Virus record (IMG/VR): IMGVR_UViG_3300035670_000048
Location: 64,001-122,612 of that record
Reading direction: 5' to 3' (one strand)
DNA length: 58,612 nt
Source of the DNA: a virus
Shown here piece after piece: positions 1,769 to 44,785 of the stretch. The position numbers were made by a program, and so were the translations under genes. Position 1 is the first letter of the stretch. Every line of letters starts with the position of its first letter. The notes below the pieces were generated by a model, which saw nothing but the letters and a program-made list of their open reading frames with translations, did no database searches and had not been told where the DNA came from.

Positions 1769-1809
1769 GGTTTTTAAATTTTAAAGTTATTAAATTAATC
1801 AACTTTTAA

Positions 1810-1836
1810 CGTCATACTCCAATTGGACCTATGACG
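1810..1836 (-). other. Stem-loop between clamp and hsp20
   Basis: CGTCATA pairs with TATGACG (7 bp) around an inner palindrome TCCAATTGGA. It lies in the 89-base gap before hsp20, downstream of a motif B copy (1846-1857). It may be a terminator for the clamp message or a structured hsp20 leader; the T-tract after it is poor. Confidence 0.45.
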
Positions 1837-1845
1837 GGTTCCATA

Positions 1846-1857
1846 ATATAAATATAG
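1846..1857 (-). promoter_or_regulatory. Promoter-like motif B before hsp20
   Basis: Reads CTATATTTATAT on the minus strand immediately after the clamp stop codon. It fits the TATATTTATA family found in front of the tail genes. Confidence 0.4.
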
Positions 1858-2574: not shown

Positions 2575-2597
2575 AATATGAATTTAATGAAGAAATT

Positions 2598-3260
2598 TTA
2601 AATAACGAAGCTCTTTTCATGTCCTACAATTACTTCAGGATCGATCCAAATGTCATAACCCTTTTCTTTAATCATATGACAGAACGCTACGTCCTCCATA
2701 GTAAAATCTCTAATGATTTTACCATCGATTTCATATTCTTTCCATATAGGTTGAAACCACGGATATTGAAGTGATTCCACTACGCCTTTTTTCATTAGTA
2801 TCCATCCAAATCCAGTATAATCAACTACGAATGGTGCTTTCTTTGCTTTGACTAGTTCGCGATTCAGGAACTGAAAGTGACCGTTCTTCTTGAAGAAGTC
2901 ATTATCCCAATGCTCTACTGTAGCATAATGAGTATTGTCTGCCATCATGTATAGACCCGAAATAATGTCTTTATCTGCATCAAGTAAGCGAGTTAAGTGT
3001 GATGGATTAAATACTACGTCTGAATCAATCCACATTATGTAATCGTAATCGACTTGGCCCTGGAATGGTTTCTGATCAACTCCAGCTAAGTTATTTCCAC
3101 CTAAGCACATATTACGAACGTAATATAGTAAAGGCGAGTATGCATTACTCAGTAATGGTTGAATGTTATTTCGAGTACACCATAGAAGTATTTCACTCCA
3201 TGATTGTAAGAAATTGTTTGAGAACTCTCTGCCAGGTAAACAGAATACTATTTTTTTCAT
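2598..3260 (-). CDS. Glycosyltransferase-like protein (GT-A fold)
   Basis: 220 aa from the ATG at 3260; a longer reading from 3323 would overlap the end of the polymerase gene and add a poor 21-residue leader, so I prefer MKKIVFCLPG. A DxD-type motif is seen in YIMWIDSDVVF, followed by ISGLYMMADN and a late segment with FTMEDVAFCHMIKEKGYDIW, as in nucleotide-sugar transferases that recognise the sugar through an E-D pair near the C-terminus. The sugar and acceptor are unknown. It may work with the glycosyltransferase operon at 6-11 kb although separated from it by the polymerase. Confidence 0.75.
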   Translation of the reverse strand: MKKIVFCLPGREFSNNFLQSWSEILLWCTRNNIQPLLSNAYSPLLYYVRNMCLGGNNLAGVDQKPFQGQVDYDYIMWIDSDVVFNPSHLTRLLDADKDIISGLYMMADNTHYATVEHWDNDFFKKNGHFQFLNRELVKAKKAPFVVDYTGFGWILMKKGVVESLQYPWFQPIWKEYEIDGKIIRDFTMEDVAFCHMIKEKGYDIWIDPEVIVGHEKSFVI

Positions 3261-3264
3261 TGTA

Positions 3265-5907
3265 TTAATTAAATGTAAAGAATTTATTAAAGTTAGCGTT
3301 GAATATAGGCATACCCCATCCAATATCGGAATATAGTCCTTCGATTTTATTTTTCATTACTGAATCAAATAATAATCCTCTATCGATATATTTTTCAATA
3401 AAGTCGATAATTTCTTTAGGGTCATTATAGCCGTTAAATCCGATACAATCGATTTTAAATGGATTATCTTTTAGGTATGCAATCAGCATTTTATCACCAA
3501 TCTGGAATTTAGAGTATTGCTTATCTAATCCTTTAAATTGCAATAAATCATTATAGCGAATAGCTGCTTTAGTATTGATCGGACATTTTAGTTTTAATTT
3601 ACTAAATATTTCACCGTTTCTAGGACGCGAATCAACATATGATCCTAATTGTTTTAGGCCAGTCGGTTTCAGTAGCTGACGCCAATCGATTGTATTTACT
3701 TTGGTTTTAAATTCAAGTATTTGCTTATCGATATCTTGTTTTTGCTTTCCGAACATAATTTGGTTTAGAATCGACTCGCCAAATTCCCTAAATAATGGTG
3801 GGAAATTAGATTTCATTAGATCCAATCCTTTCATGTCTAGCTCCTCAACAGTAACGCCCTCCTTATTTACAATATACATTGCGTAACGACGTTTGCCCGA
3901 AAAGTACCCCCGTTCAATTACCACTTCCTGCTTTAATTCAAAGTAGTGAGGTCGATCATGTAGATTAAATAAATCAACTACTAGTGTATTTAGGTGATTA
4001 TTTGCTAGTGCTTGTATTTCGGTTGCAATCTCTAATGTAGCTGCGATACATGCTGCTTTATCTGTTAAATCAATACCTTTAGCACGTAGTAAATCCTTAA
4101 CGTGAATGAATAATGAGTCAGTATCTGAAGTAACGATATAATCTTTATTTGTAGTACCTAATTTTTCATTCATTACTTTATTACAGAATATAATCGATTC
4201 CTGAGTTAATCGTTGTCCTGTTAAAGTAATAGCTTTGGATATCATTTTATGGCCATCAGTGTAGCGCCACGAATTTAAAGCAAATACACCATAAACGTCA
4301 TTTAATTTAATTTTATATGCGTGTTGGCGTCGGTTATAAAATTCACCCATAGCAGGATCATTATCTACCTTATATGCTTTTTTCATTAGATTCTTATACT
4401 CGACACGTTTATTAAACCAGTCAGTTAGAATTTCACACACGACTGATTGTTTATTTTTATCAAATATCACACCTGGAGCTGATATAATTAGGTTATTGTT
4501 TTTAACAAAATTATACATAATACCTGCTGTGGTATCTGTTAGCTTTAATGTTTTATCTGGTAGTAGCTTTTCAACTGTAATTTTAGTATCTGGATCCATG
4601 TTTTTTAATTCATCCAAAGACCACTGATTATCAGTTTTGTGCTTATTTACAATGCGACCTACTAATGTTTCGATACCGATGTTTAAAGAACGAATAATTG
4701 ATGGATATAGTGATGTAAAGTCTAAGTCAATCACCCACTCGTATAATCCTGGTTCTGGATCCTTTAAATAGCCACCAGCATATTCAGATAATTCGATTAC
4801 TTCCTCGTATTGTTCTTTAGTAATACGTCCTGCTTTGTAATCGATTTCGGCTTTCTTACGTGATAAGCCAGCTAGCTGAGGATTAGATGTAGTAGGTTTA
4901 TTAGGCGATACTACATTCTTACGTTTTAGATAAGTTAAGATAGCGCCATCATTTAGAGCAGTTGAGTAGTAGATGTTATCATAAGTAGTATGACATAAGT
5001 GACCAACAGTAACTGTTAGATCGATAAATTTCATCTTCTCCTCTAACTTAACTAAAATTTCAACGTCGCGAATGTTATACTCGATAAATTTCTGTACGTC
5101 TTCCTTAAATAATTTATCTAATGATCCGTAATACTCAATTTTACCTAATTTAACGTATTTGGTTCCGATATTGCCTAACGCATATGACGGCTCTTGCTTA
5201 GTTACATATTTTTTAAATAGTAACATATAATCTAGGTGATTAATACCTGCAATTTTAATTACTTGATCACCTTCATATTCGGTAATTGCTACTTTTCTAA
5301 TCGGAGATAAGCGGTCAGCTTGCGATTTACCTAGCACTTTGGCAATTCTGTTGTACGTGTAAGGCACGTCGAAGAATTCGCTATTCCACCCCGAAATTAT
5401 CGTTGGATCCATTTGCTCCCACTTGTCGAGGAACATCTGCAATAGCACTTTTTCATTAACACATGAGATAACAAATGTACCGTCCTTTTCAGAATTTGTG
5501 AGTAATTGATCTTCATCTAGAATATAGCAATAATATTGCTTTAACGTATTATCATATAAAGCAATTGATGTAATTTTAGTTGGAGCATTAGCTACTGTTT
5601 GTGGCGTTAATGCACCTGCAATCTCGCACTCAATATCAAAGAATACTGTGTTGTGGTATTCTGGTGTATCGTCTGATTCTGAGTATAGATCAACTAGTAC
5701 TCGAGTGTGTTTGTCAACGTCTGTTTCGAAGCAATCACTTGAGTATGTTTTAGTTGGTGATACTTTATCGCCGAATAATGTTTGGAATTGACCTTGCGAG
5801 TCGGGTTTATAAAATGTGGGTTGGTACTCGAATGAGTTCCAACCCAATTTATCATCACGTAAGTGATATTTCTTTTCTCTAGAATCGTAATAGATTGATT
5901 GATACAT
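3265..5907 (-). CDS. Family B DNA polymerase, T4 gp43-like
   Basis: 880 aa, the normal size of gp43-type replicative polymerases (T4: 898). Motifs in order: exonuclease I FFDIECEIAG, exonuclease II with WNSEFFDVPY, the YNIRDVEIL exonuclease III region, polymerase motif A DLDFTSLYPSI, motif B around KIKLNDVYGVFALNS, and motif C VTSDTDSLF. All expected carboxylates are present, so it should be active in both synthesis and proofreading. The last segment (KFFTFN) may act as the clamp-binding tail, as in T4. It is the main replicase; a second, family-A-like polymerase lies at 43.5 kb. Confidence 0.97.
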   Translation of the reverse strand: MYQSIYYDSREKKYHLRDDKLGWNSFEYQPTFYKPDSQGQFQTLFGDKVSPTKTYSSDCFETDVDKHTRVLVDLYSESDDTPEYHNTVFFDIECEIAGALTPQTVANAPTKITSIALYDNTLKQYYCYILDEDQLLTNSEKDGTFVISCVNEKVLLQMFLDKWEQMDPTIISGWNSEFFDVPYTYNRIAKVLGKSQADRLSPIRKVAITEYEGDQVIKIAGINHLDYMLLFKKYVTKQEPSYALGNIGTKYVKLGKIEYYGSLDKLFKEDVQKFIEYNIRDVEILVKLEEKMKFIDLTVTVGHLCHTTYDNIYYSTALNDGAILTYLKRKNVVSPNKPTTSNPQLAGLSRKKAEIDYKAGRITKEQYEEVIELSEYAGGYLKDPEPGLYEWVIDLDFTSLYPSIIRSLNIGIETLVGRIVNKHKTDNQWSLDELKNMDPDTKITVEKLLPDKTLKLTDTTAGIMYNFVKNNNLIISAPGVIFDKNKQSVVCEILTDWFNKRVEYKNLMKKAYKVDNDPAMGEFYNRRQHAYKIKLNDVYGVFALNSWRYTDGHKMISKAITLTGQRLTQESIIFCNKVMNEKLGTTNKDYIVTSDTDSLFIHVKDLLRAKGIDLTDKAACIAATLEIATEIQALANNHLNTLVVDLFNLHDRPHYFELKQEVVIERGYFSGKRRYAMYIVNKEGVTVEELDMKGLDLMKSNFPPLFREFGESILNQIMFGKQKQDIDKQILEFKTKVNTIDWRQLLKPTGLKQLGSYVDSRPRNGEIFSKLKLKCPINTKAAIRYNDLLQFKGLDKQYSKFQIGDKMLIAYLKDNPFKIDCIGFNGYNDPKEIIDFIEKYIDRGLLFDSVMKNKIEGLYSDIGWGMPIFNANFNKFFTFN

Positions 5908-5920
5908 ATAACCTTTTTGT

Positions 5921-5940
5921 TGTAAACATAATTAAGAAAA
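5921..5940 (-). promoter_or_regulatory. Promoter-like motif A before DNA polymerase
   Basis: TTTTCTTAATTATGTTTACA on the minus strand. It overlaps the last codons and stop of the epimerase gene and lies about 15 bases before the polymerase start. Confidence 0.5.
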
Positions 5941-6954
5941 CATTTGAGATTGAATCCATTTATATGTTTTTTCCAAGCCAACTTCTAGAGGTTGGGACGG
6001 AGCCCATCCTAACTTTTCCTTAATTAATGCATTATCAGACGTTCTGCCTCTAACACCAGTAGGTCCTGAAATATTTTTGATTCCTGCTCGTTTGCCTGCT
6101 AATTTAATTACTAGTTTAGTTAGGTTATTAATAGAAATCATTTGATCGGATCCGATATTGACTGGACCTGTAAAATCTGATTCCATTAATTTACGAATAC
6201 CATCTAAACATTCATCAATATATAGGAATGAACGTGTTTGTTCGCCATCACCCCATACTTCGATTTCTTCATCCATTAATGAATCTGCTACTTTACGGCA
6301 TATTGCTGCTGGTGCTTTTTCTTTTCCACCAATCCAAGTTCCTTCTGGTCCAAATATATTATGGAAACGAGCAATTCGAACGTTTAATCCGTAATTACGA
6401 GCATATGCTAGATACAATCGCTCTGAGAATAATTTTTCCCATCCGTATTCTGAATCTGGATTAGCTGGGTATGCAGATGACTCTTCGCAGTTTGGATTTT
6501 CAGGGTCTAACTGATTGTGTTCAGGATACATACAAGCAGAAGACGAGTAGAATACCTTTTTAACTTTATTTTTAGCACATTCATTAACAACATTTAAATT
6601 AATTGTTGCAGAATTATGCATTACATTCGCATCGTTATCGCCTGTAAAAATATAACCAGCACCTCCCATGTCTGCAGCTAATTGATATACTTCGTCAAAT
6701 GCCATTTCTTCTGAGAATGGATGCTTAAAGTACTCACATGGTAATGGTAATCCATTTCTACCTTCTAATCTTACTACTGCTTCAACATGACGTGGATCTC
6801 TTAAATCATATCTTAGAAAATCATCTGCTTCTGATTTACCATATTCTGGGTATTTTAAATCAACTCCACGTACCCAATATCCTTCTGATTTTAATCTTTT
6901 AACTAGATGATTCCCAATAAAACCTCCAGCTCCTAATACTAATGCTGTTTTCAT
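5932..6954 (-). CDS. NAD-dependent sugar epimerase, GDP-mannose 3,5-epimerase-like
   Basis: 340 aa, extended short-chain dehydrogenase fold. Visible are the Rossmann motif GAGGFIGNHL at the N-terminus, a VYQLAADMGGAGYI segment, SSSACMYPE, the catalytic YGWEK (YxxxK), FHNIFGP, and QTRSFLYIDEC. The combination ADMGG..YI and SSACMYPE is typical of GDP-mannose 3,5-epimerase, which makes GDP-L-galactose (and GDP-L-gulose). That makes a phage-supplied activated L-sugar plausible for the GT11-type transferase next door. Substrate is inferred; another GDP- or UDP-sugar epimerase activity is possible. Confidence 0.85.
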   Translation of the reverse strand: MKTALVLGAGGFIGNHLVKRLKSEGYWVRGVDLKYPEYGKSEADDFLRYDLRDPRHVEAVVRLEGRNGLPLPCEYFKHPFSEEMAFDEVYQLAADMGGAGYIFTGDNDANVMHNSATINLNVVNECAKNKVKKVFYSSSACMYPEHNQLDPENPNCEESSAYPANPDSEYGWEKLFSERLYLAYARNYGLNVRIARFHNIFGPEGTWIGGKEKAPAAICRKVADSLMDEEIEVWGDGEQTRSFLYIDECLDGIRKLMESDFTGPVNIGSDQMISINNLTKLVIKLAGKRAGIKNISGPTGVRGRTSDNALIKEKLGWAPSQPLEVGLEKTYKWIQSQMFS

Positions 6955-12396: not shown

Positions 12397-13107
12397 TTAG
12401 CTATATGCTTGTAGATTTAATTTTAACATTTCTAATACTTCTTGTTTAGCTGTCTTTTGGTGATCAGCAAATACACCTGATACTTCTGATGTTACCATTG
12501 AAGCTCCCATATGCTTAACTCCACGACACGATACACAGTTGTGTGTTGCGTGCATCATTACCATAATACCTTCATTACCTTCAATTAAATTATTCATAGC
12601 ATTATGAATAGCCATAGTTAATTGTTCTTGAATAGCACCTCTACGTGAGAAATGTTCAACTACACGATTTAATTTTGATAATCCGATTACCTTTGATTCA
12701 GGACCTGGCACATATGCAATATGACATTTACCTAAGATCGTTTGGTGGTGGTGAGAACACATCGAAATTACTGGGATATCGCGCTCTAATACAATACCGT
12801 TGTAACCATCTGATGGGAATGCTGTAACATCACCTAATACTTCATAACGTCCACGCCATAAATCATTAACGTATGCTTTAGCAACACGTTTTGGTGTGTC
12901 AGATGAGTTTGGATCATTACGCCAATCAACGCCTAATGCGTCTAAGAATTGACCATATGCTTTAGTTGCATTGGTAATGACTGCTTGTTTTTCCTCTACA
13001 GTCAGAGAGCGTTCTTTACCTTCGGTTTCGATGATTTGTTGCAAATGTAATGAGATACCATTTGCATTACCTGAATTGGTAATTTCTAAATTGCTAATTT
13101 CGCACAT
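12397..13107 (-). CDS. folE: GTP cyclohydrolase I
   Basis: 236 aa. The zinc ligands are in place: MCSHHH (C117, H120) and, later, NCVSCRGV; between them GKCHIAYVPGPESKVIGLSKL and the RR.QIQEQL-like helix. It converts GTP to dihydroneopterin triphosphate, the first step towards queuosine precursors (and folate). Since QueD, QueE, QueC and a DpdA-like transglycosylase are also encoded here and no other folate gene is seen, its likely job is feeding 7-deazaguanine synthesis for DNA modification. The first ~35 residues are extra relative to a minimal FolE. Confidence 0.95.
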   Translation of the reverse strand: MCEISNLEITNSGNANGISLHLQQIIETEGKERSLTVEEKQAVITNATKAYGQFLDALGVDWRNDPNSSDTPKRVAKAYVNDLWRGRYEVLGDVTAFPSDGYNGIVLERDIPVISMCSHHHQTILGKCHIAYVPGPESKVIGLSKLNRVVEHFSRRGAIQEQLTMAIHNAMNNLIEGNEGIMVMMHATHNCVSCRGVKHMGASMVTSEVSGVFADHQKTAKQEVLEMLKLNLQAYS

Positions 13108-26203: not shown

Positions 26204-27346
26204 TTAATTTGATAATGGTGCTTTAATTCCTGAATGTGACTCGTATCCGATTAACTCGAAGCAATCTGGACGATATGATAATATTTTTTCACTAAATGTT
26301 TTTGGTCCTAATCGTTCTTTAACTAACTCATGTTGGTACCAATTACGTTCAGTAATGTTTACTTTAGGTAAGTTAAATGGTTTGCGTAGAATCTGCATTT
26401 TGGCTTGTTCAATGTGATTTGAATATAAATGCACGTCGCCTAAATTTCCAATCAATTCATCAGGTACCATATTCACTTCTTTAGCTAGTATTTCAAGTAA
26501 TAGAGCATATGAAGCAATATTAAATGGTAATCCTAAGAACGTATCTACTGAACGTTGATTCCACATTAGAGAGATTGCTCGAGTTGGTAGATTGAATTTA
26601 TCCAAATATGAATGCGATGGGTATGCCATTCTATCCCAAGGAATAGGTTCATCTGATCTATAATATTTAAGTCTTGATTCCCATCGTTCCTTAATATCCA
26701 ACTCTCTCGTATAAATTTGAAATCCATAATGACAAGGTGGAAGAATCATTTCGTCTAATTGGCCCACATTCCAAGCACTTACCATTAATCTTCTACTATC
26801 TGGATTTGTTTTAAGTTCGTTTATTAGATTTTGGATTTGGTCTATTTCTTCACCTACTTTTAGCCAACTTCTCCATTGTTTACCATAGATTGGTCCTAAT
26901 TCACCCCATCGTTCGGCAAACTCTTTATCGGTTTTAATATTTTTGATAAATTCTTCTTTTGTTAGTGGTGTAAGTTCATCGGAGTTACTAAACCATTTTT
27001 CAATATGAGGTTGCATTCCCATAATATCACCACTTTTGTAACCATCAATTACATTATCAATTGTTTTACTATAATTCTTATATGCATCACCATCCCAAAT
27101 ATGGCAATCGTAATCCAATAGGAATTTGATATTAGTATCTCCACGTAAAAACCATAGTAATTCAGCTACGATTGATTTCCACGCCATCTTTTTAGTGGTT
27201 AAAAGTGGAAACCCATCAGACATTTTATGGCGAATCTGACGTCCAAATACAGATATTGTACCGGTACCTGTTCTATCAGATTTAACTATACCGTTATCTA
27301 AAATGTCTTGTAATAATGCTTGATATGATTTATCAATATTGTTCAT
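26204..27346 (-). CDS. thyA: Thymidylate synthase (ThyA) with internal insertion
   Basis: 380 aa against the usual 264-290. Core motifs are intact: SDRTGTGTISVFG, FPLLTTKK, ELLWFLRGDTN, the RRLMVSAWNVGQLDEMILPPCHYGFQIY block with the catalytic cysteine, then MWNQRSVDTFLGLPFNIASYALL and DVHLYSNH. Two stretches are extra: about 50 residues around GYKSGDIMGMQPHIEKWF and about 45 between FQIYTREL and PTRAISLMW. It makes dTMP from dUMP for phage DNA and works with the NrdAB/thioredoxin genes at 34-37 kb. Confidence 0.95.
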   Translation of the reverse strand: MNNIDKSYQALLQDILDNGIVKSDRTGTGTISVFGRQIRHKMSDGFPLLTTKKMAWKSIVAELLWFLRGDTNIKFLLDYDCHIWDGDAYKNYSKTIDNVIDGYKSGDIMGMQPHIEKWFSNSDELTPLTKEEFIKNIKTDKEFAERWGELGPIYGKQWRSWLKVGEEIDQIQNLINELKTNPDSRRLMVSAWNVGQLDEMILPPCHYGFQIYTRELDIKERWESRLKYYRSDEPIPWDRMAYPSHSYLDKFNLPTRAISLMWNQRSVDTFLGLPFNIASYALLLEILAKEVNMVPDELIGNLGDVHLYSNHIEQAKMQILRKPFNLPKVNITERNWYQHELVKERLGPKTFSEKILSYRPDCFELIGYESHSGIKAPLSN

Positions 27347-28387: not shown

Positions 28388-29170
28388 TTACACACCTCTT
28401 TGGTCTGCGTAAGCTATAATGTGGTCTCTACCTGAGAAATTATATGCATTTTTCGTGCAGAAATCTAATACCATAGGATAAGTACGAATTAATTCATCGC
28501 GTGAATCTCCTGGAGGCATCAGCCACGTTTTGTGTTTTGGTATATTAAAACGCTTACGGAATGATTCAACTTCAGCCCATATTTCCGGTTGTTCTACTGG
28601 ATTTACTACGGGTTTGAAGTGATAGTTCTTGTGGTATGCTAGTAATTGACGAATTGCATCGTATTTTCCTCTAAATTTATTATGTTGATCGATAAATTTC
28701 TGATCAACGATTTTCTCAGTATTAATAATTTTAGTACCTAATACTGGAACCGAATTAGAGAATTTAGGCGATAATGAAATAACATCAATGCGGTGATCTG
28801 TAATTAGTGGATGTGATCCTTCAGTCTCCATCGTTACAATACCTTTCTTAGCATGTAATGCTTTAAATAGATTGATAATCTCATTACATAATTCAGGATG
28901 CATCGTTGGTGATCCACCAGTTAACATCAAGTGATTGATATCCCAGTTATCGGCAAAGAATTGTTTAATGTCTTGTAATGTAAATTTACCTTTTTCTGGT
29001 GTAATCGATGTATAAAATGAATCACACCATCCACCTTCACCAAAGTAACAACGGTGAGTACACCCTGTAGTACGTACAATAATGTGTGGTCTGCCGGCTA
29101 ATGAGCCTTCAGTCTGCACACATCTATACATTTCTACAATAGGCTGATTTTTAGTATAATCTAGTGCCAT
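28388..29170 (-). CDS. queE: QueE: 7-carboxy-7-deazaguanine synthase (radical SAM)
   Basis: 260 aa. The radical-SAM cysteines are C37, C41 and C49 in TTGCTHRCYFGEGGWCDS, i.e. CX3CX7C, an unusual spacing (the common one is CX3CX2C; variants exist in QueE). Next come TGGSPTMHPE (the GGEP-like SAM motif) and ETEGSHPL. The enzyme turns 6-carboxy-tetrahydropterin, the product of QueD, into 7-carboxy-7-deazaguanine, the substrate of QueC. It ends the cluster that starts with the DpdA-like gene and is close to the 77-aa gene (20-base overlap). Confidence 0.9.
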   Translation of the reverse strand: MALDYTKNQPIVEMYRCVQTEGSLAGRPHIIVRTTGCTHRCYFGEGGWCDSFYTSITPEKGKFTLQDIKQFFADNWDINHLMLTGGSPTMHPELCNEIINLFKALHAKKGIVTMETEGSHPLITDHRIDVISLSPKFSNSVPVLGTKIINTEKIVDQKFIDQHNKFRGKYDAIRQLLAYHKNYHFKPVVNPVEQPEIWAEVESFRKRFNIPKHKTWLMPPGDSRDELIRTYPMVLDFCTKNAYNFSGRDHIIAYADQRGV

Positions 29171-30481: not shown

Positions 30482-31288
30482 TTATTTATTTTTCCATTCC
30501 TCCAAAACACTTTCAGCATGTGCTTTAGCAACATCCCAACTAACAGGACCCGTCTCATCTTCGTACTGAACAGGATCAGGGCGTCCTAATCGAATAAAAG
30601 CTTCAATTCGTTCTACTGATGCTGCTGATTTGTAATCACTGTTTCCTGAAGGATAGGGTTTGTAAGAAGTATTTGTACGTTTATATACTTTATCAAAATC
30701 TAATCCTAATGCTTCACATGATACTAAACCATCTTCTAGAATATCATACTTCATAACTTCTAAATATGGAGTATAATATGTTACTAATTCAGAATCCCAA
30801 TTCCCAACTTTAAAAGCATGTAAATCAGCATCGCGAAATTCAGCTCTGCAGTCGGGGTAAACACTCTCATCTCCTTTATGAATACCCATCGCGATTGCTA
30901 CTTCTTGCTTATCGCCTTTGGTTGCAACTGACAATGCTGCTGCTTGAATCAATGAAGCAAAAATTTTATTACGATTAGGTACAACAGTTTCTTTCATGTT
31001 GTCTTGTTCGTAATGTCCTTCTGGTACATCGTTTCCACCTGTAACTAATGCTGAATGGAGTAAGTTCTGCAATCCATCTAATTTAATAATTTGATGTGTT
31101 ACTGGTTGTCCTTTACTTTGTAGATAATCAACTAATGAAGCGGCACGTTCTAATTCAACACGGTGTTTTTGGCCGTAATCGAATCCTAATGCTGTAACTT
31201 CATAGCCATTAGCTAATAAGTGAAGTAATAATGTTGAGGAATCCATTCCTCCGGATAGTGATAAAACTGCTTTTTTTGTACTAGACAT
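30482..31288 (-). CDS. queC: QueC-like: 7-cyano-7-deazaguanine synthase without zinc cysteines
   Basis: 268 aa. N-terminal PP-loop LSLSGGMDSSTLL (about residues 11-22) and FDYGQKH are intact, as are VPNRN and the adenylation-domain end. In bacterial QueC the C-terminal end has C..C..C..C (typically WSCY ... CGKCDSC) binding zinc; here the equivalent stretch reads RTNTSYKPYPSGNSDYKSAASVERIEAF, with no cysteine. QueC turns 7-carboxy-7-deazaguanine into preQ0 with ATP and ammonia. The change suggests a diverged, possibly structurally rewired phage form, or altered substrate. Confidence 0.88.
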   Translation of the reverse strand: MSSTKKAVLSLSGGMDSSTLLLHLLANGYEVTALGFDYGQKHRVELERAASLVDYLQSKGQPVTHQIIKLDGLQNLLHSALVTGGNDVPEGHYEQDNMKETVVPNRNKIFASLIQAAALSVATKGDKQEVAIAMGIHKGDESVYPDCRAEFRDADLHAFKVGNWDSELVTYYTPYLEVMKYDILEDGLVSCEALGLDFDKVYKRTNTSYKPYPSGNSDYKSAASVERIEAFIRLGRPDPVQYEDETGPVSWDVAKAHAESVLEEWKNK

Positions 31289-33468: not shown

Positions 33469-33487
33469 GTAAATTTAATTAAGACAT
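33469..33487 (-). promoter_or_regulatory. Promoter-like motif A before the deazaguanine cluster
   Basis: ATGTCTTAATTAAATTTAC on the minus strand; overlaps the end of the GIY-YIG gene and touches the start of the 66-aa gene. Confidence 0.45.
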
Positions 33488-34093
33488 TTTATTTTTGTAT
33501 TTAAATTTATATCCTCTAACTTGAGTGATAGGAGTACCACTTCTATTTATGAAGTTATTCAATACATTCCATATCATTTCTTTTCTTACTCCTACAAATT
33601 CAGCTGCTTGTTGTTGATTGGGAAACTCTGTAATGTATTTTCCATCTAAATCATACATTAAAATAGGACAACGAGGAGCGTTTTTTATTTTTTCTTTAAA
33701 TTCATCTGTTGATTGCCATTTTACTCGTTTTTTCCCGAAATCAGCTGGTTTTGGTTTATTTTTTAAAGCAGATGATATTTTTTGTTTGGATTGGGAAGTG
33801 TGGGAACCAGGCCCACACCCTCCTCTATTATCATTAAGACCATTTATATTACTTTGGTAATAATTAATCCAGTATCTCTCTCGTTCTCGTAATAATTTAT
33901 TATCATTTATAACTTCTTCTATGACTTCAAATATATGATCTTCATGTTTATATTTATCTAATGATAATTTAAATGTAGAAGTTTTATTCATTCCCGATTT
34001 ACTTCTATAAGATTTCCATCTTAATTCTATATTCTTAGATAAACCGATATATATTTTACCTTCGGGATTTGTTATTTTATATATTCCAACCAT
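33479..34093 (-). CDS. GIY-YIG homing endonuclease
   Basis: 204 aa. GIY-YIG domain at the N-terminus (VGIYKITNPEGKIYIGLSKNIELRW; later ERYWINYYQS with the catalytic Glu) followed by NUMOD-type DNA-binding modules (SQSKQKISSALK; PILMYDLDGKYITEFPNQQQAAEFVGV). A free-standing mobile gene lying between nrdA and the deazaguanine cluster. Motif B (34111-34124) precedes it. Confidence 0.92.
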   Translation of the reverse strand: MVGIYKITNPEGKIYIGLSKNIELRWKSYRSKSGMNKTSTFKLSLDKYKHEDHIFEVIEEVINDNKLLRERERYWINYYQSNINGLNDNRGGCGPGSHTSQSKQKISSALKNKPKPADFGKKRVKWQSTDEFKEKIKNAPRCPILMYDLDGKYITEFPNQQQAAEFVGVRKEMIWNVLNNFINRSGTPITQVRGYKFKYKNKMS

Positions 34094-37132: not shown

Positions 37133-37150
37133 TAACGATAATTAAGAAGA
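37133..37150 (-). promoter_or_regulatory. Promoter-like motif A before thioredoxin
   Basis: CTTCTTAATTATCGTTAG on the minus strand, overlapping the helicase stop codon and about 50 bases upstream of the thioredoxin start. Confidence 0.4.
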
Positions 37151-38533
37151 AGTTGACAGCTCGAAAAACTTCTTTGCTAGATATTCTCTATCGTCTGGAT
37201 CAATATCTTGTTTAGTTCTTTGTTGCTGTTTTGGTGCACCATTCGACTCGTCTTCATCCTCGACATACTCTCCTGTAATACGAGTCACTCCAGTTGATCC
37301 TTCAAAATCACAATTGAATGTAATACCATCTGTACCGTAACGATTTTTAATAATGTGCCAACGAGAAGTATTATCTACTTTATCTTTTCGTAGACGAGAT
37401 GTAGAAATGATAATATCGCCAATCATAATTTTATCATATGATCCTGCTGCTTTATCTCCTTCAACTACTTTCTCGCCTGCACCTGAACGATTTACTTGTG
37501 ATGGCGATACAATTGGAATACCTAATTCCTTAGCTAATCCTTTAGCGTCTGTATAGATATCATCTAAATCATCTTTACGTTCGTTTCTAGCGCGTTGACG
37601 GTTCTTTAATAAATCTAGATAATCAATAAAGATAACATCTGGTTTAAAGTTATGTTGTGTCCACATTTGATCCAAATGGCGCTCAATATCATCTAATGAT
37701 GCGCGTTTTGGTGGGTATTCTTTAATGATTAATTTACCAGCTAATCCACGAGTTGCTTCCTCAATTTTAACACGATGTAATGGTAATTGATCAACTGGAA
37801 TTTTAAGTAAATTAGCATCAAAACGTTGTCCAACATATCCTTCACCTAATTCAAGTGAGTAATATACTACATTACCACCTAATTTAGCTGCCTCTAGCGC
37901 CATCGAAATTGCTGCCCATGACTTACCAGAACCAGGACCACCAAAGAATATAACTAAATCGCCCTTACCATAACCTCCTTGAGTAATTGAATTAATCTGT
38001 GGCCAAGGAGTAGGTATAACACGCCTATCATCTGGTCTGTAACGTGCTTCAACGTCTAATGCAAAATCGTGTCCAGTATTTTTTTCTTGTGCTGTGACGA
38101 TTGCTTTAGAAATCAATGTACGGATTGATTCATAGTCGCCATCGTTTAGTAAATCAACAGATGTCATAATTGCTTTCTTCATCTGTTGGTTTTGGCAGAA
38201 TTTTGAGAATTCCTGCTCGATGTATTCTTTATCGTGTGATTGATCCGCCATTTTATAGGCTTCTTTTAATTCCTCAATCACAGCAATCTTTAATACATCA
38301 TTATCTTCTTTTTTTACTTCGATCTGAAGTGCCTCCATTGTAGGAGTAGTGTGAAATTCGTCAAAGTACTTCTGTAGACGACTTACGATCCATTTTCTGG
38401 CTGTATTTTCGAAATACTCGTCTGTAACTGAATCTGATACGTCTACTAGAAATTTCCTATCCGTTAGAAGCAAACCTAGTACTTTGGTTTGGAACGAATT
38501 ACCGTATTTCTCTAAATTTTCTAATGAAGTCAA
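37142..38533 (-). CDS. Replicative DNA helicase, DnaB/T4 gp41-like
   Basis: 463 aa. N-terminal helical domain, then the RecA-fold: Walker A FFGGPGSGKSWAAIS (about 198-208), VVYYSLELGEGYVGQR, Walker B DVIFIDYLDLL, and a SPSQVNRSG (sensor) segment. It should unwind DNA at the phage fork. No primase is seen in this window. It follows the NUMOD-HNH homing gene. Confidence 0.95.
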   Translation of the reverse strand: MTSLENLEKYGNSFQTKVLGLLLTDRKFLVDVSDSVTDEYFENTARKWIVSRLQKYFDEFHTTPTMEALQIEVKKEDNDVLKIAVIEELKEAYKMADQSHDKEYIEQEFSKFCQNQQMKKAIMTSVDLLNDGDYESIRTLISKAIVTAQEKNTGHDFALDVEARYRPDDRRVIPTPWPQINSITQGGYGKGDLVIFFGGPGSGKSWAAISMALEAAKLGGNVVYYSLELGEGYVGQRFDANLLKIPVDQLPLHRVKIEEATRGLAGKLIIKEYPPKRASLDDIERHLDQMWTQHNFKPDVIFIDYLDLLKNRQRARNERKDDLDDIYTDAKGLAKELGIPIVSPSQVNRSGAGEKVVEGDKAAGSYDKIMIGDIIISTSRLRKDKVDNTSRWHIIKNRYGTDGITFNCDFEGSTGVTRITGEYVEDEDESNGAPKQQQRTKQDIDPDDREYLAKKFFELSTSS

Positions 38534-38560: not shown

Positions 38561-38580
38561 GTAAATATGATTAGGAAATT
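38561..38580 (-). promoter_or_regulatory. Promoter-like motif A before the helicase
   Basis: AATTTCCTAATCATATTTAC on the minus strand; contains the stop codon of the HNH gene and lies about 30 bases upstream of the helicase start. Confidence 0.5.
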
Positions 38581-39326
38581 TTAAATTTCCATATATAACC
38601 ATATGCTTGTTTTTTAATACCATTACAGCATTCTGATAATGCTGATGGTGGTTTATTTAATGATTTAGCAGCATCTGATATACTATTCCATTCTTTAATA
38701 AATGTATTATCTAATGTATACTGTGTGATAGGAGTAGATCTAGTTTCTATAATTTTATGTCTATTATTAGAAATGTTTTGATTCCATTCTTCACTTCGCT
38801 TTACTTTCTTCATAGCTTCAGAACGTTTTCTTTTATGTTCTTCAGTATGTGTCTTTCCTATTAAAGATTTACTAATTTTTTCTCTCCACTCATCATTATA
38901 CATCGAATGTCCTTTTCTATTATCTGACATTTTCTGTTTTGTTTCTTCTGATTTGGATTTACCTAGACTGGATTTACTGATTTTCTGTTTAGTATCCTCA
39001 GTACGACTTACTCCAGTAAGAAATACAGAATGTTCTAATTTGAGTCGTTCATACATTCTACTACTTATAACATAATGATTATTCTTATGTTTTCTTTTAC
39101 CTGTTGCCATCAGGAATAAAGCATATTTTAATTTTTCATTATGTGGGTATATTTCACATAATAATAAATGACACAGAAAATGCTCTCTTGCTGTTAATCT
39201 AACAATGTTATTTTTATCTTTTCCACCTAAACATTTTGGAAGGATATGGTGATTCTCTCCATACCCTTCTAATGTTCTGTTTTGGGCTCGTTCTACTATT
39301 TGGTTGTATATTTTATTATAATTCAT
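38571..39326 (-). CDS. HNH homing endonuclease with NUMOD repeats
   Basis: 251 aa. The HNH-like core is YGENHHILPKCLGG then LTAREHFLCHLLL; the middle has three NUMOD3-like units (TKQKISKSSLGKSKSEETKQK, EWREKISKSLIGKTHTEEHK) and the C-terminus a NUMOD1-like domain (ISDAAKSLNKPPSALSECCNG ... AYGYIWKF). A mobile endonuclease inserted before the helicase gene. Motif B is directly upstream (39331-39345). Confidence 0.9.
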   Translation of the reverse strand: MNYNKIYNQIVERAQNRTLEGYGENHHILPKCLGGKDKNNIVRLTAREHFLCHLLLCEIYPHNEKLKYALFLMATGKRKHKNNHYVISSRMYERLKLEHSVFLTGVSRTEDTKQKISKSSLGKSKSEETKQKMSDNRKGHSMYNDEWREKISKSLIGKTHTEEHKRKRSEAMKKVKRSEEWNQNISNNRHKIIETRSTPITQYTLDNTFIKEWNSISDAAKSLNKPPSALSECCNGIKKQAYGYIWKFKIS

Positions 39327-39625: not shown

Positions 39626-40657
39626 TTATTGCTTCCAATCTAACGAAGAAAAATTTTCTATCAACCATGATTGCCAATTTACTCGCTCATTTAGTTGGTC
39701 ATTCTCCGTCATTTCAACGAAATTCCCTATGTTTAGGGATGGTGGCGCCATTTCAATTGTTGCGTCAATGATGCGCTTATCTTCGTTGCTTATATTTGGA
39801 TCTTTTAGTGACATTAATTGGTAGTTAATACCCAATTGGTGCTCAAACTGCAACACTTTAGTGTATAATGGATTTGTTGATTCATTATCACGTGCTTTTT
39901 TAAGCAAATCCTCAATCTCCAGTTGTTTTGGAAGTAACAATTCTGGAAATAATTTAATTAATTTTTTAGGGCCTAATCCTTGTACTCCAGGTACGTTATC
40001 TCCAGCATCACCCATCAATAATTTATAATTGATAAAGTTATGTGAATGGATTTGGTATTCTTCTAGTACGTCTTCTGGTCTATATGTTTTCTTTTTAGTT
40101 GGAGAATATATAGATGTTTTCTTAGATACTAATTGTAGGAAATCCTTATCAGCCGACATAATCGTTACTTCATCTACTTCAGAATCTGCTTCGAATTTCT
40201 GTACTAGATAACCCATTACATCATCGGCTTCAATTTTTGGAATCGAAATCATCGATACTGGTAGTTGAGTGCAGTATTCGATTAATCGTCCCATTTGATT
40301 AGCCATTGATTCGCTTTCCTCGTTTTTAGTATCGAATACTTTCCAATTGGTTACTTTTAAATTAGTACGGTTTGCTTTATAATCAGCATATAAGTACTTT
40401 TTATTAGTAGAATTGCCTTGTCCATCAAACACTAAAACAACCCTAGTCGGTTGGTATAGCTTAATAGCATAACCAACCGATTTAAGGAAGCCCACTAATC
40501 CACCAACGTGATGTCCATTAGGGTTTAAGTGCTGAATAATAGCAAATGAACGGAGGAATGTATTCATTGAGTCTACAATGAGTACTCTAGCGTTCTTTGA
40601 ATTATTTTTATCAGCGTTTAATTCTGATAATAACTTATTTAGAAAGTCTTTATCCAT
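39626..40657 (-). CDS. 5'-3' exonuclease/RNase H, T4 Rnh-like FEN family
   Basis: 343 aa from ATG at 40657 (40681 would overlap the previous gene by 32 bases). Blocks: LIVDSMNTFLRSF, VLVFDGQGN, KIEADDVMGYLV, IMSADKDFLQLV (acidic cluster), and the helix-hairpin segment LLMGDAGDNVPGVQGLGPKKLI. As in T4 it should remove RNA primers and 5' flaps. It lies between the recombinase genes and the helicase. Confidence 0.92.
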   Translation of the reverse strand: MDKDFLNKLLSELNADKNNSKNARVLIVDSMNTFLRSFAIIQHLNPNGHHVGGLVGFLKSVGYAIKLYQPTRVVLVFDGQGNSTNKKYLYADYKANRTNLKVTNWKVFDTKNEESESMANQMGRLIEYCTQLPVSMISIPKIEADDVMGYLVQKFEADSEVDEVTIMSADKDFLQLVSKKTSIYSPTKKKTYRPEDVLEEYQIHSHNFINYKLLMGDAGDNVPGVQGLGPKKLIKLFPELLLPKQLEIEDLLKKARDNESTNPLYTKVLQFEHQLGINYQLMSLKDPNISNEDKRIIDATIEMAPPSLNIGNFVEMTENDQLNERVNWQSWLIENFSSLDWKQ

Positions 40658-41057
40658 TGTTTTGTTCTTTAACTCGATCAATTAGTTCATTTATACAATC
40701 ATTCTCGATTTCCTCGTATGTTCCTCTGAATCTCATAAATGAATTATCTTCGTCTTTATAAAACTCTCCTACTAAATAATTACTTCCACCACTTAACATT
40801 CTTACGCCGCCTATCCAGTTATGATTTTCTCTAAACCATCTAAATACTTGTTGTTTAAGTGGTAATGGAATTGGTGTAATAGTTTTATCTATTGTACAAT
40901 CAGGATAGCCACAATGCAGATTATGTAATTGACATCCTCCAGGTCTTTCTTTCTCCATACATTTTTTAGTATGTTCAGATTTTATCAAACATCTTTCATC
41001 AAACCCTAATTCCTTTAAGGCTAATGCTTGCTCGTAGGTTACAAATTCAATATCCAT
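40650..41057 (-). CDS. Hypothetical protein of a Bacteroidota phage/prophage family
   Basis: 135 aa from ATG at 41057 (41078 would overlap the recombinase gene). N-terminal IEFVTYEQALALKELGFDE is a start I recognise from many small proteins in bacteroidotal genomes and prophages. The centre has several Cys (KKCMEKERPGGCQLHNLHCGYPDC), and the end has VFRWFRENHNWIGGVRM. Function unknown. It is useful as a host clue. Confidence 0.7.
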   Translation of the reverse strand: MDIEFVTYEQALALKELGFDERCLIKSEHTKKCMEKERPGGCQLHNLHCGYPDCTIDKTITPIPLPLKQQVFRWFRENHNWIGGVRMLSGGSNYLVGEFYKDEDNSFMRFRGTYEEIENDCINELIDRVKEQNNG

Positions 41058-41058
41058 T

Positions 41059-42141
41059 TTATTCTGGTTCTTGATCAAACATTACTGATGTATCGATTCC
41101 GTCTTCGCCTGCTTCTTCTACAATATCGAAATCAGCTGTTCCCAAGATACGTAACCATTCTTCGGAGTGGTCTTTCTTGTAGTTGTCGATTGCCTTTTTA
41201 TCGTCATCAATAAAACCGTGTACTGTCATAATGACCGATCCTTTAGTTTGTACACCTGTAATGTGATTTTTATCCACTGCTACTTTAGTACGTTTAGCAA
41301 ATTCAACGTCCTTGCCGCCTTTAGTTGCTTTAATCTTATTAGTACCAGCATTTGTGATATTGCCGAATGTAACTACAACTGATGAATCAAAGAACATCGT
41401 GTTTCCACCTTTATTCTTCATTTTTGGTTGTTCCATCGGCATCGATGGTTTATCTACCCAAATCTTATTTACTGCCACTAACGTATTAGTGTATGGGTAA
41501 TTTTCTTTGCGTGATAATACAATCTTTTGATTGATAAAGTTACCAAAGGATTGAGACATAGCTCCAGCATTCCATTCATTGTTGTTCTTATTTGATTCAA
41601 CAGATAACTTACATGGAATCGATCCAACTGAATCCCATAGAAATAATAAATCGTATGGTAATCGATTCTGTGATTGCTCGTGTAGTAAGTCTGCAATAAA
41701 TGCTGCTACATCTTCAACTGTATTTAATGTACCTCTATCAATATAGATAAAATCACCCTCATAGTCGATTAATTCCCCTGTATTTTCATCCCATACTTCA
41801 TTTAATTTGAATCCCATCTGCTTGACGTGATCCCAATTCCATTTCATCTCGGTGATAATGAATACTGGTAATACACCTGCTTTCTGAGCTGCTACTGCAC
41901 ACTCTAGCATTGCGGTTGTTTTACCTGTATCGGAATGTCCTCGAAGTAAGGTAATATGGCCCATTGGAATACCTGGTAATGATAATACTTCATTAAACGC
42001 AGGAGATAGTGGTAGCCATTTCTGTGCTTTAAACTTTACTGACTGATCTAAAAACTTGGACTTCTTAAAAGAAGCCAAGTTAAATTTAGATTTGTCGCCT
42101 AGTACAGTTGATACTGTTTCCGAAACTGATTTTTTTGCCAT
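41059..42141 (-). CDS. RecA/UvsX-like recombinase
   Basis: 360 aa. Walker A TLLRGHSDTGKTTAML (about 65-80), PVFIITEMKWNWDHVKQMG, LLFLWDSVGSIPC (Walker B-like) and a FINQKIVLSRKE region. This is the UvsX type with GHSDTGKT in place of bacterial GPESSGKT. It forms filaments on SSB-coated DNA for strand exchange and recombination-dependent replication. Its start codon overlaps the stop of the SSB gene (TAATG). Confidence 0.92.
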   Translation of the reverse strand: MAKKSVSETVSTVLGDKSKFNLASFKKSKFLDQSVKFKAQKWLPLSPAFNEVLSLPGIPMGHITLLRGHSDTGKTTAMLECAVAAQKAGVLPVFIITEMKWNWDHVKQMGFKLNEVWDENTGELIDYEGDFIYIDRGTLNTVEDVAAFIADLLHEQSQNRLPYDLLFLWDSVGSIPCKLSVESNKNNNEWNAGAMSQSFGNFINQKIVLSRKENYPYTNTLVAVNKIWVDKPSMPMEQPKMKNKGGNTMFFDSSVVVTFGNITNAGTNKIKATKGGKDVEFAKRTKVAVDKNHITGVQTKGSVIMTVHGFIDDDKKAIDNYKKDHSEEWLRILGTADFDIVEEAGEDGIDTSVMFDQEPE

Positions 42142-42986
42142 TATTGAAATAATTCGTCGAATTTATCTGATGAGTTTGTATTCAAAGAGAACGCAGCACG
42201 TTCTTGTTCTGTTACTTGGTTTTCATTTACCCAATCTGATTGAGCAGCCGGAGCAGCAGGAGCAGCTTCAGTTGTAGTTGCTGTAGTTGTTGTTTGCTCT
42301 GCTTCAGCATCTGGATTTAGCCATTTAGCTAATAATTCTTTAATGTCGTTGTATTCGCGTTTGCGATTAATCGTCATAATATCTGGTTGTTCTTCTAACC
42401 ATTTATTTACTAGATTAGCATCATCAGAAATTGGAGATGATTTTGGACGAGGACGTAATGTACAGCTAACTACCTTACGGCCAGCTACTTCAGAATTTAC
42501 GGCATCGATTTTAAAATCGAATCCATCTTGGATATCAGTGAAATCACCGTAATCCTCATCAGCAGCAAATCCTAGTAATGATTTGTATACTTCCTTACCG
42601 AATTCCCATAAACGAACACCTAAATGTTCTTCACCACGAACGATAACAGGAACAAATACACGCATTTTTGGATCTAACTTCTTAGCTAATGCCCAGTTGT
42701 CGCGATCTTTTGATTGACGTAATTTTGCTGCAAATTCCATAATTGGATCTGCTTCACCCCAGTTGTTTAAAGCCAATACTGGTCCTTTAGCGAATCCATA
42801 GTGGAAATATACCTCGCGGAATGGGTTTTGTTTATTGAATTTTGATGGTACGATGCGAATCGTATGATTACCTACTTGAGGCTTCCAGAACACTTTCGTG
42901 TAGTCGATTTTTTCGTAAGTCTTACCTCCCGATTTCTGTGGAGCGTTAAGATTACCTAATTTTTGCTTTAACAAAGCTAAATCCAT
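42141..42986 (-). CDS. Single-stranded DNA-binding protein, T4 gp32-like
   Basis: 281 aa. FWKPQVGNHTIRIVPSKFNKQNPFREVYFHYGF and the following RVFVPVIVRGEEHLGVRLWEFGKEVY are the OB-fold signature of phage gp32-type proteins. A middle acidic/Ala/Thr linker (QTTTTATTTEAAPAAPAAQ) and an acidic tail (DKFDELFQ) that would bind replication partners. Unlike T4 gp32, no zinc-binding Cys cluster is visible. Confidence 0.88.
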   Translation of the reverse strand: MDLALLKQKLGNLNAPQKSGGKTYEKIDYTKVFWKPQVGNHTIRIVPSKFNKQNPFREVYFHYGFAKGPVLALNNWGEADPIMEFAAKLRQSKDRDNWALAKKLDPKMRVFVPVIVRGEEHLGVRLWEFGKEVYKSLLGFAADEDYGDFTDIQDGFDFKIDAVNSEVAGRKVVSCTLRPRPKSSPISDDANLVNKWLEEQPDIMTINRKREYNDIKELLAKWLNPDAEAEQTTTTATTTEAAPAAPAAQSDWVNENQVTEQERAAFSLNTNSSDKFDELFQ

Positions 42987-43040: not shown

Positions 43041-43475
43041 CTACAGATTAATTATCTTGTGGATTTTAGTTTTGATGATATTTAAATCATTGCTTTGGAT
43101 CAACAATATTGAATTCTTGTAATCGATCCAGTTAATTCTGTAGTTGGTGTCTAATACACCATTGTTCAAAGACTTGATTAATGCATTTAGTGCATTTATT
43201 GTATATAACGTATTTGACTCTTTCTTACGATGCAGCAATATCGTATTAGGTAGCACGGATTGTTGCTCCATATTGAATGTATCGATATTATACGTGCAAA
43301 CATACTCTTCAGTAGACAACGATTCTAATACAAATATCTTAGAATATAAAATAGTGTATTTGGTCTGTAAAGTATTTAGAGTATTGTCTAATTCTTCAGG
43401 AGCCGTGAATGTACAGAATAGCTTATTCGCCATTAAAAACGTGCTGTTAAATAAATCGTAACTTAAGTCTGCCAT
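43041..43475 (-). CDS. Hypothetical protein between SSB and the family-A-like polymerase
   Basis: 144 aa. Alternating strands; VLPNTILLHRKKESNTLYTINALNALI and INWIDYKNSILLI are the best candidates for a family pattern, which I half-recognise from T4-like phages without a function. The start codon adjoins a TATATTTATG sequence (motif B-like). Confidence 0.65.
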   Translation of the reverse strand: MADLSYDLFNSTFLMANKLFCTFTAPEELDNTLNTLQTKYTILYSKIFVLESLSTEEYVCTYNIDTFNMEQQSVLPNTILLHRKKESNTLYTINALNALIKSLNNGVLDTNYRINWIDYKNSILLIQSNDLNIIKTKIHKIINL

Positions 43476-43486
43476 AAATATATGAT

Positions 43487-44785
43487 TTATTTTATTTCTG
43501 CATAATTTCCACCCATTTTCGTGGAGTAATTAAACTTTAGCAACGCAGTTATGCTATCTAATAAATTCTCTGACGAATCGTAATCCAATAATATAGAATC
43601 GTATGTGTATAGGATAATTTTTGTTTTCTTATCTTTAAGCAAATTCATCACAGCAGAAAACTGAACTACGTTAAATATCGTTTCTGTATTTTGGACAATA
43701 TAATTGAGAAGTTTCTGTGGTGTTGCGTTTTCTATTATTTGTTTTGTGAATCGTTTACCGAATTGAGCACCAATTGCACCATTTTCTGCGTCTTTCCACA
43801 ACTGATTTGTATAGTTATTTACTTCAGCAAAGAATGGTTTGTCTTGGAAATCCTTTCTAACGCCTCCATATAATTGCTGAAATACTAGTTCCTTAATTGT
43901 TTCAGGTGTTGATCCAGGAAATTGAAGCGATAATTGTTCATATATGTTTCCTTTAAATTCGTATCCAGCTAATTTAGCGATGATAGTTGGGTGGTATGCT
44001 TTAAAATCAATTTCAACTAATGTATCATTTTCTGGAATGAATGCAGCACGTTCGCCATTTGTTTTATTTAGAGCAGCAAAATTAACACCATTAAATGCAT
44101 TTGATGGTCTTCCAGTTAATGTATTTAAATTATATTGTGTATATATTTTACCTTTAGATACTGAAAATTTAGGGTTAGGTAATGTTTTAAAGTACTCAAT
44201 AAATGGTTCCTTGCTTAATTTAATACCTTGCTTTTCAATATTATAAAATAATGGAATCATGTAATGATTCAAGAATGCGTACTCGTCTATATTTTCACTA
44301 ATTTTATTTATAGTTTGCTCAATATGATCATATACGTTTTCCCATTTTTCATAATGTTTCGCTATTGGAATTAATGTTGATGGTGCTTCAGTATAGTATT
44401 TGCGTTTAAAATCCGCTTCAACTTTTGATTCGTATTGATCAATGTTAATGTCTTGAATCGAATAGTATGAGCTAATCAGTTGTGCATCAATTAATTGAGG
44501 ACTCAACGTGGGAAAGTGGTGTAACACCGCTTTCTTATCTAATGTGTATAGTTTATCGGCTTTAGATAGCTTAGCGAGTACATCCGCTAATTGTAGTGAT
44601 AGCGATTCGGAGTGGTTTAAACACAGAATGTATCCTTTATGTGATTTAATCCAACGAACATAAATTAGGCTAATATTTTGTAAAGCAGGATGATAGTTTT
44701 CATTCGTTGGAATAATATGAATGAATACATCTTCGCCAATATGTAACTGATCTAGCTGATCTTGTTTTTCAATAATATAAAACAT
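43487..44785 (-). CDS. Family-A-like DNA polymerase, truncated and with changed active-site residues
   Basis: 432 aa. From about residue 220 it shows family A motifs: TLTGRPSN (as TATGRLSS), motif A VEIDFKAYHP with Asp260, motif B K298-ELVF302-QQLYG307 (as K..NF..IYG) and motif C LYTYD396SILLDY. The acidic residue five places after the motif A Asp, a steric-gate Glu in Pol I, is His265, and the second acid in motif C is Ser397. There is no recognisable exonuclease domain; the first ~200 residues are unassigned. It could be a second polymerase (repair, translesion, primer synthesis). The main replicase is at 3.3 kb. Confidence 0.75.
   Translation of the reverse strand: MFYIIEKQDQLDQLHIGEDVFIHIIPTNENYHPALQNISLIYVRWIKSHKGYILCLNHSESLSLQLADVLAKLSKADKLYTLDKKAVLHHFPTLSPQLIDAQLISSYYSIQDINIDQYESKVEADFKRKYYTEAPSTLIPIAKHYEKWENVYDHIEQTINKISENIDEYAFLNHYMIPLFYNIEKQGIKLSKEPFIEYFKTLPNPKFSVSKGKIYTQYNLNTLTGRPSNAFNGVNFAALNKTNGERAAFIPENDTLVEIDFKAYHPTIIAKLAGYEFKGNIYEQLSLQFPGSTPETIKELVFQQLYGGVRKDFQDKPFFAEVNNYTNQLWKDAENGAIGAQFGKRFTKQIIENATPQKLLNYIVQNTETIFNVVQFSAVMNLLKDKKTKIILYTYDSILLDYDSSENLLDSITALLKFNYSTKMGGNYAEIK

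What the first reader, a model, noticed from the sequence alone, without database searches (positions are those of the whole stretch)
43487..44785. Second polymerase: family-A-like with His in the steric-gate position
TLTGRPSN, motif A (Asp260), motif B (K298, F302, Y306-G307) and motif C (Asp396) are recognisable, so the fold is likely. The residue five places after the motif A aspartate is His instead of Glu, and the second acid of motif C is Ser. The Glu normally blocks ribonucleotides and holds template alignment; its loss could permit rNTP use (primase-like or translesion role). There is no primase in this window, and a family B replicase is already present.
Basis: partly seen in the sequence, partly recalled or inferred. 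Interest (0 to 1): 0.7.

Follow-up and report, generated by a model that had tools for sequence, protein, structure and literature searches.

The report
Accessory phage polymerase with histidine gate
A stripped-down extra copy of a common DNA-copying enzyme, already described in outline in 2024, sits in the replication gene cluster of many aquatic phages; in every copy checked the residue that normally keeps RNA building blocks out has been swapped for another one, and the gene travels with a small unknown partner gene, but nobody has tested what it makes.

Summary
Window 43487-44785 (-) encodes a 432-aa polymerase with Asp260, Lys298, Phe302, Tyr306-Gly307, Asp396 and His265 where family A has the steric-gate Glu. 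AlphaFold (pLDDT 93.8) gives a Pol I large-fragment fold (Z 26.7) without the thumb. It belongs to divPolA1, described in 2024 from 14 phages (PMC11348598). New here: His265 is invariant (187 of 187 covered unique relatives; Glu in 144 of 144 canonical phage PolAs), with three further pocket changes (fingers Arg lost, motif C His to Tyr, a new invariant Glu368), strong purifying selection (median dN/dS 0.12) and a small partner ORF never seen without it where enough DNA was held. Best reading: an accessory polymerase for short-patch DNA synthesis in the gp32/UvsX/FEN/DnaB module, with a dedicated subunit. A two-subunit primase like CcPol-MP is the bold alternative. Activity is untested.

The parts
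43487..44785 (-). divPolA1-type accessory family-A polymerase, 432 aa
   Evidence: ORF; 33% identical to Flavobacterium phage immuto gp001 'DNA polymerase family A', which passes PF00476 at 4.6e-11; fold Z 26.7 to Pol I large fragment
44291..44785 (-). N-terminal part, residues 1-165: vestige of the 3'-5' exonuclease domain
   Evidence: model aligns from residue 1 to Bacillus Pol I residue 300 onward; candidate positions for the exonuclease acids vary freely (the assignment is by eye); PMC11348598 reports the aspartates replaced in divPolA1
44141..44194 (-). residues 198-215: where the thumb of Pol I (about 87 residues) is missing
   Evidence: profile alignment jumps from Klenow chain residue 237 to 325 while the profile goes from 204 to 208; spacing 15-39 residues in the family against 126 between roughly corresponding points in one canonical PolA
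44099..44122 (-). TLTGRPSN, with the invariant Arg226 (Pol I R668 position)
   Evidence: 60 of 60, 186 of 188 with 2 gaps
43988..44008 (-). motif A D260-F-K-A-Y-H265-P; His265 at the steric-gate position
   Evidence: D260 and H265 187 of 188, 1 gap; Glu in 144 of 144 canonical phage PolAs
43865..43894 (-). motif B K298...F302...Y306-G307; the fingers Arg four residues before Lys is lost
   Evidence: K298, Y306, G307 187 of 188, 1 gap; Arg only 5 of 188 at that column; Arg 144 of 144 in canonical PolAs
43682..43693 (-). Q365-N-T-E368: invariant Gln (Pol I Q849) and a new invariant Glu three residues on
   Evidence: 186 of 188 each, 2 gaps; canonical PolAs have Ala or Gly there, 144 of 144
43583..43603 (-). 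motif C Y395-D396-S397...D401
   Evidence: D396 185 of 188, 3 gaps; position 397 Ser 109, Ala 76, 3 gaps; position 395 Tyr 185, Phe 1, 2 gaps
43041..43475 (-). 144-aa partner ORF ('dn144'), no known family; predicted alpha/beta fold
   Evidence: found in 173 of 179 polymerase loci with at least 700 nt downstream; 71 of 80 partner loci hold the polymerase, the other 9 have too little upstream DNA; model pLDDT 87.6
42141..42986 (-). gp32-like single-strand binding protein
   Evidence: PF08804 1.8e-10, phrog_1192 6.2e-20
41059..42141 (-). UvsX-like recombinase
   Evidence: phrog_97 4.1e-21
39626..40681 (-). 5'-3' exonuclease (FEN type)
   Evidence: PF02739 4.2e-33
37142..38533 (-). DnaB-like replicative helicase
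   Evidence: phrog_19 2.2e-83
3265..5907 (-). family B replicase, 880 aa
   Evidence: PF00136 4.8e-33 and exonuclease PF03104 1.2e-17

Best explanation
The ORF is a divPolA1: an accessory family-A polymerase that has lost proofreading and the thumb but keeps the two-metal catalytic core. I propose that it does short, distributive DNA synthesis at gp32-coated recombination and lagging-strand intermediates (gap filling after the FEN nuclease, D-loop extension or lesion bypass), with its 144-aa partner as a dedicated subunit, while family B (or full-length family A) and a DnaG-type primase do bulk replication and priming. Shown: homology, fold, missing thumb, invariant catalytic residues, His gate, purifying selection, conserved module, co-occurrence with the partner. 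Inferred: activity, substrate, partnership, pathway.
For: Family-A homology and fold. Catalytic D260 and D396, K298, Y306, R226, Q365 invariant in all covered relatives; median dN/dS 0.12, so an active enzyme is likely. Module pol - partner - gp32 - UvsX - FEN - DnaB seen across loci. All 10 records of at least 150 kb also have a replicase and a primase, so its role is additional. PMC11348598 reached the same view of retained DNAP activity, lost exonuclease and truncated thumb. PMC10061031 states that E. coli Pol I keeps activity with a truncated thumb but with less processivity and fidelity.
Against: No activity is known. The fingers Arg, motif C His and gate Glu are all lost, so the nucleotide pocket is unlike any canonical PolA checked; this could mean another substrate or no catalysis. 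Nothing ties it to a given pathway beyond gene neighbourhood.
Confidence: 0.5

Rival explanations
1. A two-subunit primase: the thumbless family-A polymerase plus its small partner start chains de novo on single-stranded DNA, working like the SCCmec CcPol-MP pair, as a second (repriming) primase next to DnaG.
For: Same general build: shortened thumb, truncated or vestigial exonuclease, small partner encoded next door; CcPol-MP is an experimentally shown primase (PMC7581432 passages; PMC10061031 passages). Partner never seen without the polymerase where enough DNA was held. gp32 and DnaB in the same module.
Against: A DnaG-type primase is present in 10 of 10 large records. The partner model is not an obvious OB fold; its best matches include ACT, EF-G and PII-like domains at Z about 6, not significant. 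CcPol-MP prefers dNTPs, so a His gate is not needed for priming.
Confidence: 0.22
2. Gate loss makes it an rNTP-using polymerase (RNA or mixed primers, or a short-transcript RNA polymerase).
For: Pol I E710 is the steric gate (PMC13228545 passage); here it is His in all covered relatives; solved Bacillus E658A structures with rCTP exist among the matches (titles).
Against: His760 is the presumptive steric gate of E. coli Pol III alpha (PMC8485763 passages). F302, which helps place the sugar, is kept in 185 of 188. No promoter-binding domain seen.
Confidence: 0.13
3. A catalytically dead scaffold that recruits FEN, helicase or recombinase.
For: Loss of thumb, fingers Arg and motif C His.
Against: All metal ligands and Lys/Tyr of motif B invariant down to about 25% identity.
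Confidence: 0.12

Closest known systems
divPolA1 (Yutin et al. 2024, Virol J 21:200, PMC11348598; first author recalled)
   Same: Homologous to the type member (immuto phages, 33% identity); extra to a regular replicase; truncated thumb; replaced exonuclease acids; replication-gene neighbourhood
   Different: Nothing that excludes membership. The paper's main text does not contain the word 'steric', and the section I read does not name the gate residue or the partner ORF
Bacterial DNA polymerase I large fragment (Klenow, Bacillus)
   Same: Fold, catalytic Asp pair, motif B Lys/Phe/Tyr-Gly, TGR Arg, Gln849 position
   Different: No thumb; Glu gate to His; fingers Arg lost; motif C His to Tyr; new Glu368
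SCCmec CcPol-MP primase (PMC7581432, PMC10061031)
   Same: Family-A catalytic subunit with shortened thumb and truncated exonuclease plus small partner gene
   Different: Partner fold not an obvious OB fold by model; host group and helicase differ; DnaG present here; no activity data
divPolA2 of barbaviruses and Vibrio phage 1.063.O
   Same: Extra, thumbless PolA relative in phages
   Different: The one member I read (AUR84708) keeps Glu at the gate position (DFKAFE, read by eye); no profile similarity found (probability 2.8)

Membership tests
divPolA1 | homology to immuto gp001 and relatives | tested here: met
   tblastn 33% identity over 98%, 1e-62
divPolA1 | present beside a regular replicase | tested here: met
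   PF00136 at window 3265-5907; 10 of 10 large records have one
divPolA1 | truncated thumb | tested here: met
   model
divPolA1 | inactivated 3'-5' exonuclease | tested here: inconclusive
   candidate positions vary freely, but mapped by eye, without coordinates
Family A DNA polymerase (PF00476) | profile and fold homology | tested here: met
   immuto homologue 4.6e-11 over cut-off; 12 of 60 members at E 0.01 or better, the window protein itself not; Z 26.7
Family A DNA polymerase (PF00476) | two catalytic Asp, motif B Lys and Tyr-Gly | tested here: met
Family A DNA polymerase (PF00476) | Glu steric gate and fingers Arg (usual, in my view not defining) | tested here: not met
   His 187 of 188, 1 gap; Arg 5 of 188
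CcPol-MP primase | OB-fold ssDNA-binding partner | tested here: inconclusive
   partner model shows an alpha/beta fold, no significant match
CcPol-MP primase | primer-independent synthesis | not testable with these tools
   needs purified proteins
divPolA2 | homology to AUR84708 | tested here: inconclusive
   no profile similarity found; gate residue differs
T7-like single-subunit RNA polymerase | promoter-binding N-terminal domain | tested here: inconclusive
   the N-terminal part aligns with the Pol I exonuclease region; RNA polymerases not compared directly

The most novel reading that the evidence does not exclude
divPolA1 and its 144-aa partner form a previously unrecognised two-subunit phage enzyme whose nucleotide pocket was rebuilt as a unit (gate Glu to His, fingers Arg lost, motif C His to Tyr, new Glu368), so that it starts chains or uses ribo- or otherwise unusual nucleotides at recombination forks: a further independent route to a primase from a DNA polymerase, running beside DnaG.
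Probability: 0.18. Interest if true: 0.75.

Novelty: new member of a known kind. Interest (0 to 1): 0.45.

Why it matters
The gate Glu was invariant in every canonical phage PolA checked here, so a large natural family that replaced it with His, kept the catalytic core and dropped the thumb is a ready test of what the gate does. The partner ORF gives that test a second component. If the pair primes or uses rNTPs, it would be another independent origin of priming from a DNA polymerase; if it only fills gaps, it shows a minimal repair polymerase in phages that already have a replicase.

Tried and rejected
Primase by elimination: rejected. DnaG-type primase found in 10 of 10 records of at least 150 kb (13 of 18 records of all sizes, one of the 13 weak at 1.2e-4; the five without a hit are 99-136 kb, linear). 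The first query, immuto DnaG against the own record, gave nothing, explained: positions 1763-6648 of the own record are collinear with a relative in which DnaG follows shortly after; the own contig ends there.

Ser in motif C as a sign of altered function: rejected (Glu in only 2 of 144 canonical PolAs).

A first gate count by regular expression failed for 81 of 85 sequences and was replaced by alignment. One search replaces: 164 loci, 144 unique proteins, 51 clusters at 70%; the sample is skewed to the immuto replicase clade and Muddy-like phages.

Family B relation: motif A reads like a family B motif A (D-F-x-A-Y-H-P); this comparison is from memory. I judged it superficial, because motif B spacing and whole-fold matches are family A.

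Partner strictly adjacent: in the first set it is present in 106 of 106 loci with at least 700 nt downstream, but in the wider set only 116 of 173 are directly adjacent and 57 lie 0.46-4.3 kb downstream; 6 of 179 lack it, with 725-2049 nt downstream, so they are undecided. The 80 partner loci overlap in contigs with the polymerase loci and are not independent.

Partner function by fold: no significant match. No OB-fold single-strand-binding protein was noticed among the listed rows.

Ascertainment: one of six peptide patterns covers motif A; those do not, though 29 covers Gln365-Glu368, and 30 and 74 cover motif C, so the invariance of those columns is partly selected. In one search, 208 of 210 loci gave an ORF (L152 and L041 did not), 188 unique proteins.

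Not done: complex prediction, distances in the model (coordinates not given), a family tree.

Full report
Observation. Alone it has no significant Pfam or PHROG match. Its relatives decide the matter: Flavobacterium phage immuto gp001, 33% identical, is annotated 'DNA polymerase family A' and passes PF00476 at 4.6e-11; 12 of 60 aligned relatives match PF00476 at 0.01 or better; a 17-sequence profile hits Klenow at 1.2e-6; profile-profile comparison with four canonical phage PolAs gives 3.6e-12. In the last two alignments His265 stands in the column of the Pol I gate Glu.

Fold. AlphaFold on 60 sequences gives mean pLDDT 93.8, pTM 0.91. The best solved match is the Bacillus Pol I large fragment, Z 26.7, 389 residues, rmsd 3.5, 16% identity; Foldseek agrees. 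The thumb is missing: the profile alignment skips Klenow chain residues 238-324, and the spacing is short throughout the family. The N-terminal part is a vestige of the 3'-5' exonuclease domain.

The pocket. Over 188 unique relatives (of 208 loci with an ORF out of 210 examined), D260, H265, K298, Y306 and G307 are kept in 187 with 1 gap; R226, Q365 and E368 in 186 with 2 gaps; D396 in 185 with 3 gaps; F302 in 185, with 2 Trp and 1 gap. In 144 unique canonical phage PolAs the gate is Glu in 144, the fingers Arg is kept in 144, the motif C His in 144, and the position of E368 is Ala or Gly in 144. In this family the fingers Arg is seen in 5 of 188 and the motif C His is Tyr in 185 of 188 (1 Phe, 2 gaps). 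So four pocket changes go together. The second acid of motif C is not one of them: Ser 109, Ala 76, 3 gaps here, while canonical PolAs have Ala 65, Gln 65, Ser 11, Glu 2, Gly 1. The same phage type can carry both: immuto's full-length PolA keeps Glu (DYTSLE).

Selection. Among 27 close sequences median dN/dS is 0.12 (5-95%: 0.08-0.17; 320 pairs used), and the His265 codon varies only synonymously. A working, constrained protein is therefore likely.

Neighbourhood. The order pol - partner - gp32 - UvsX - FEN - DnaB recurs across the loci; immuto has one further ORF between partner and gp32. In Microcystis phage Mel-JY01 the polymerase and partner are followed by further ORFs, a RecA-type recombinase, a gene labelled DNA polymerase I that I took as the 5'-3' exonuclease, and a helicase. 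The partner (43041-43475) was found in 173 of 179 polymerase loci with at least 700 nt downstream. A search that started from the partner gave 80 loci, 71 with the polymerase; the other 9 have at most 2.5 kb upstream. In the annotated phage collection the partner's six records are the same as the six convincing polymerase records (two further weak Rhizobium phage hits at E 0.2 are set aside). Its model (pLDDT 87.6) is alpha/beta, without a significant match.

Replisome of the carriers. All 10 divPolA1-bearing records of at least 150 kb have a DnaG-type primase and a regular replicase: family B in 8, family A in 2. The window's own record (122,612 bases) shows no DnaG, but its first kilobases are collinear with a relative in which DnaG follows shortly after, and the contig ends there.

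Literature. The family is divPolA1 of PMC11348598 (section 13 read whole; passages): 14 phages, truncated thumb, replaced exonuclease aspartates, conserved replication neighbours. 'Steric' does not occur in its main text. A search for the name found only that paper and its preprint among relevant hits. PMC7581432 and PMC10061031 (passages; abstract of the latter) describe CcPol-MP, a family-A polymerase with a small partner that acts as a primase. PMC2579912 (passages) describes TV-Pol with an RxxxK fingers motif, whose Arg is lost here. PMC8485763 (passages) gives His760 as the presumptive gate of E. coli Pol III alpha. PMC13228545 (passages) names Glu710 as the gate of Pol I. PMC7824862 (passages) and PMC6302109 (no passage found for my terms) added nothing that decides.

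Interpretation. The simplest reading is an accessory polymerase for short DNA synthesis within a recombination and replication module, with a dedicated subunit. The primase-pair reading keeps a real precedent and stays open. None of the functional steps has been shown.

Noticed in passing
43041-43475 (-): 144-aa ORF of no known family, more conserved between distant phages than the polymerase (35-43% against 24-28% identity to the Mel-JY01 member), with a central HRKKESNTLYTINALN stretch.
   Followed up: partly
44291-44785 (-), residues 1-165: Invariant H32, Y42, H58 and D100 in the vestigial exonuclease domain; they could form a new site.
   Followed up: no
G000:C1:1-6648 (locus L397): The record that holds the window ends just before the expected DnaG gene, so it is incomplete.
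   Followed up: yes
38571-39326 and 33479-34093 (-): Homing-endonuclease-like ORFs placed among the replication and nucleotide genes.
   Followed up: no
12397-13107, 28388-29170, 30482-31288 (-): GTP cyclohydrolase I, QueE-like and QueC-like genes, pointing to deazaguanine DNA modification.
   Followed up: no
26204-27346 (-): Thymidylate synthase ORF of 380 aa covering only 279 profile positions, so about 100 residues may be an insertion.
   Followed up: no
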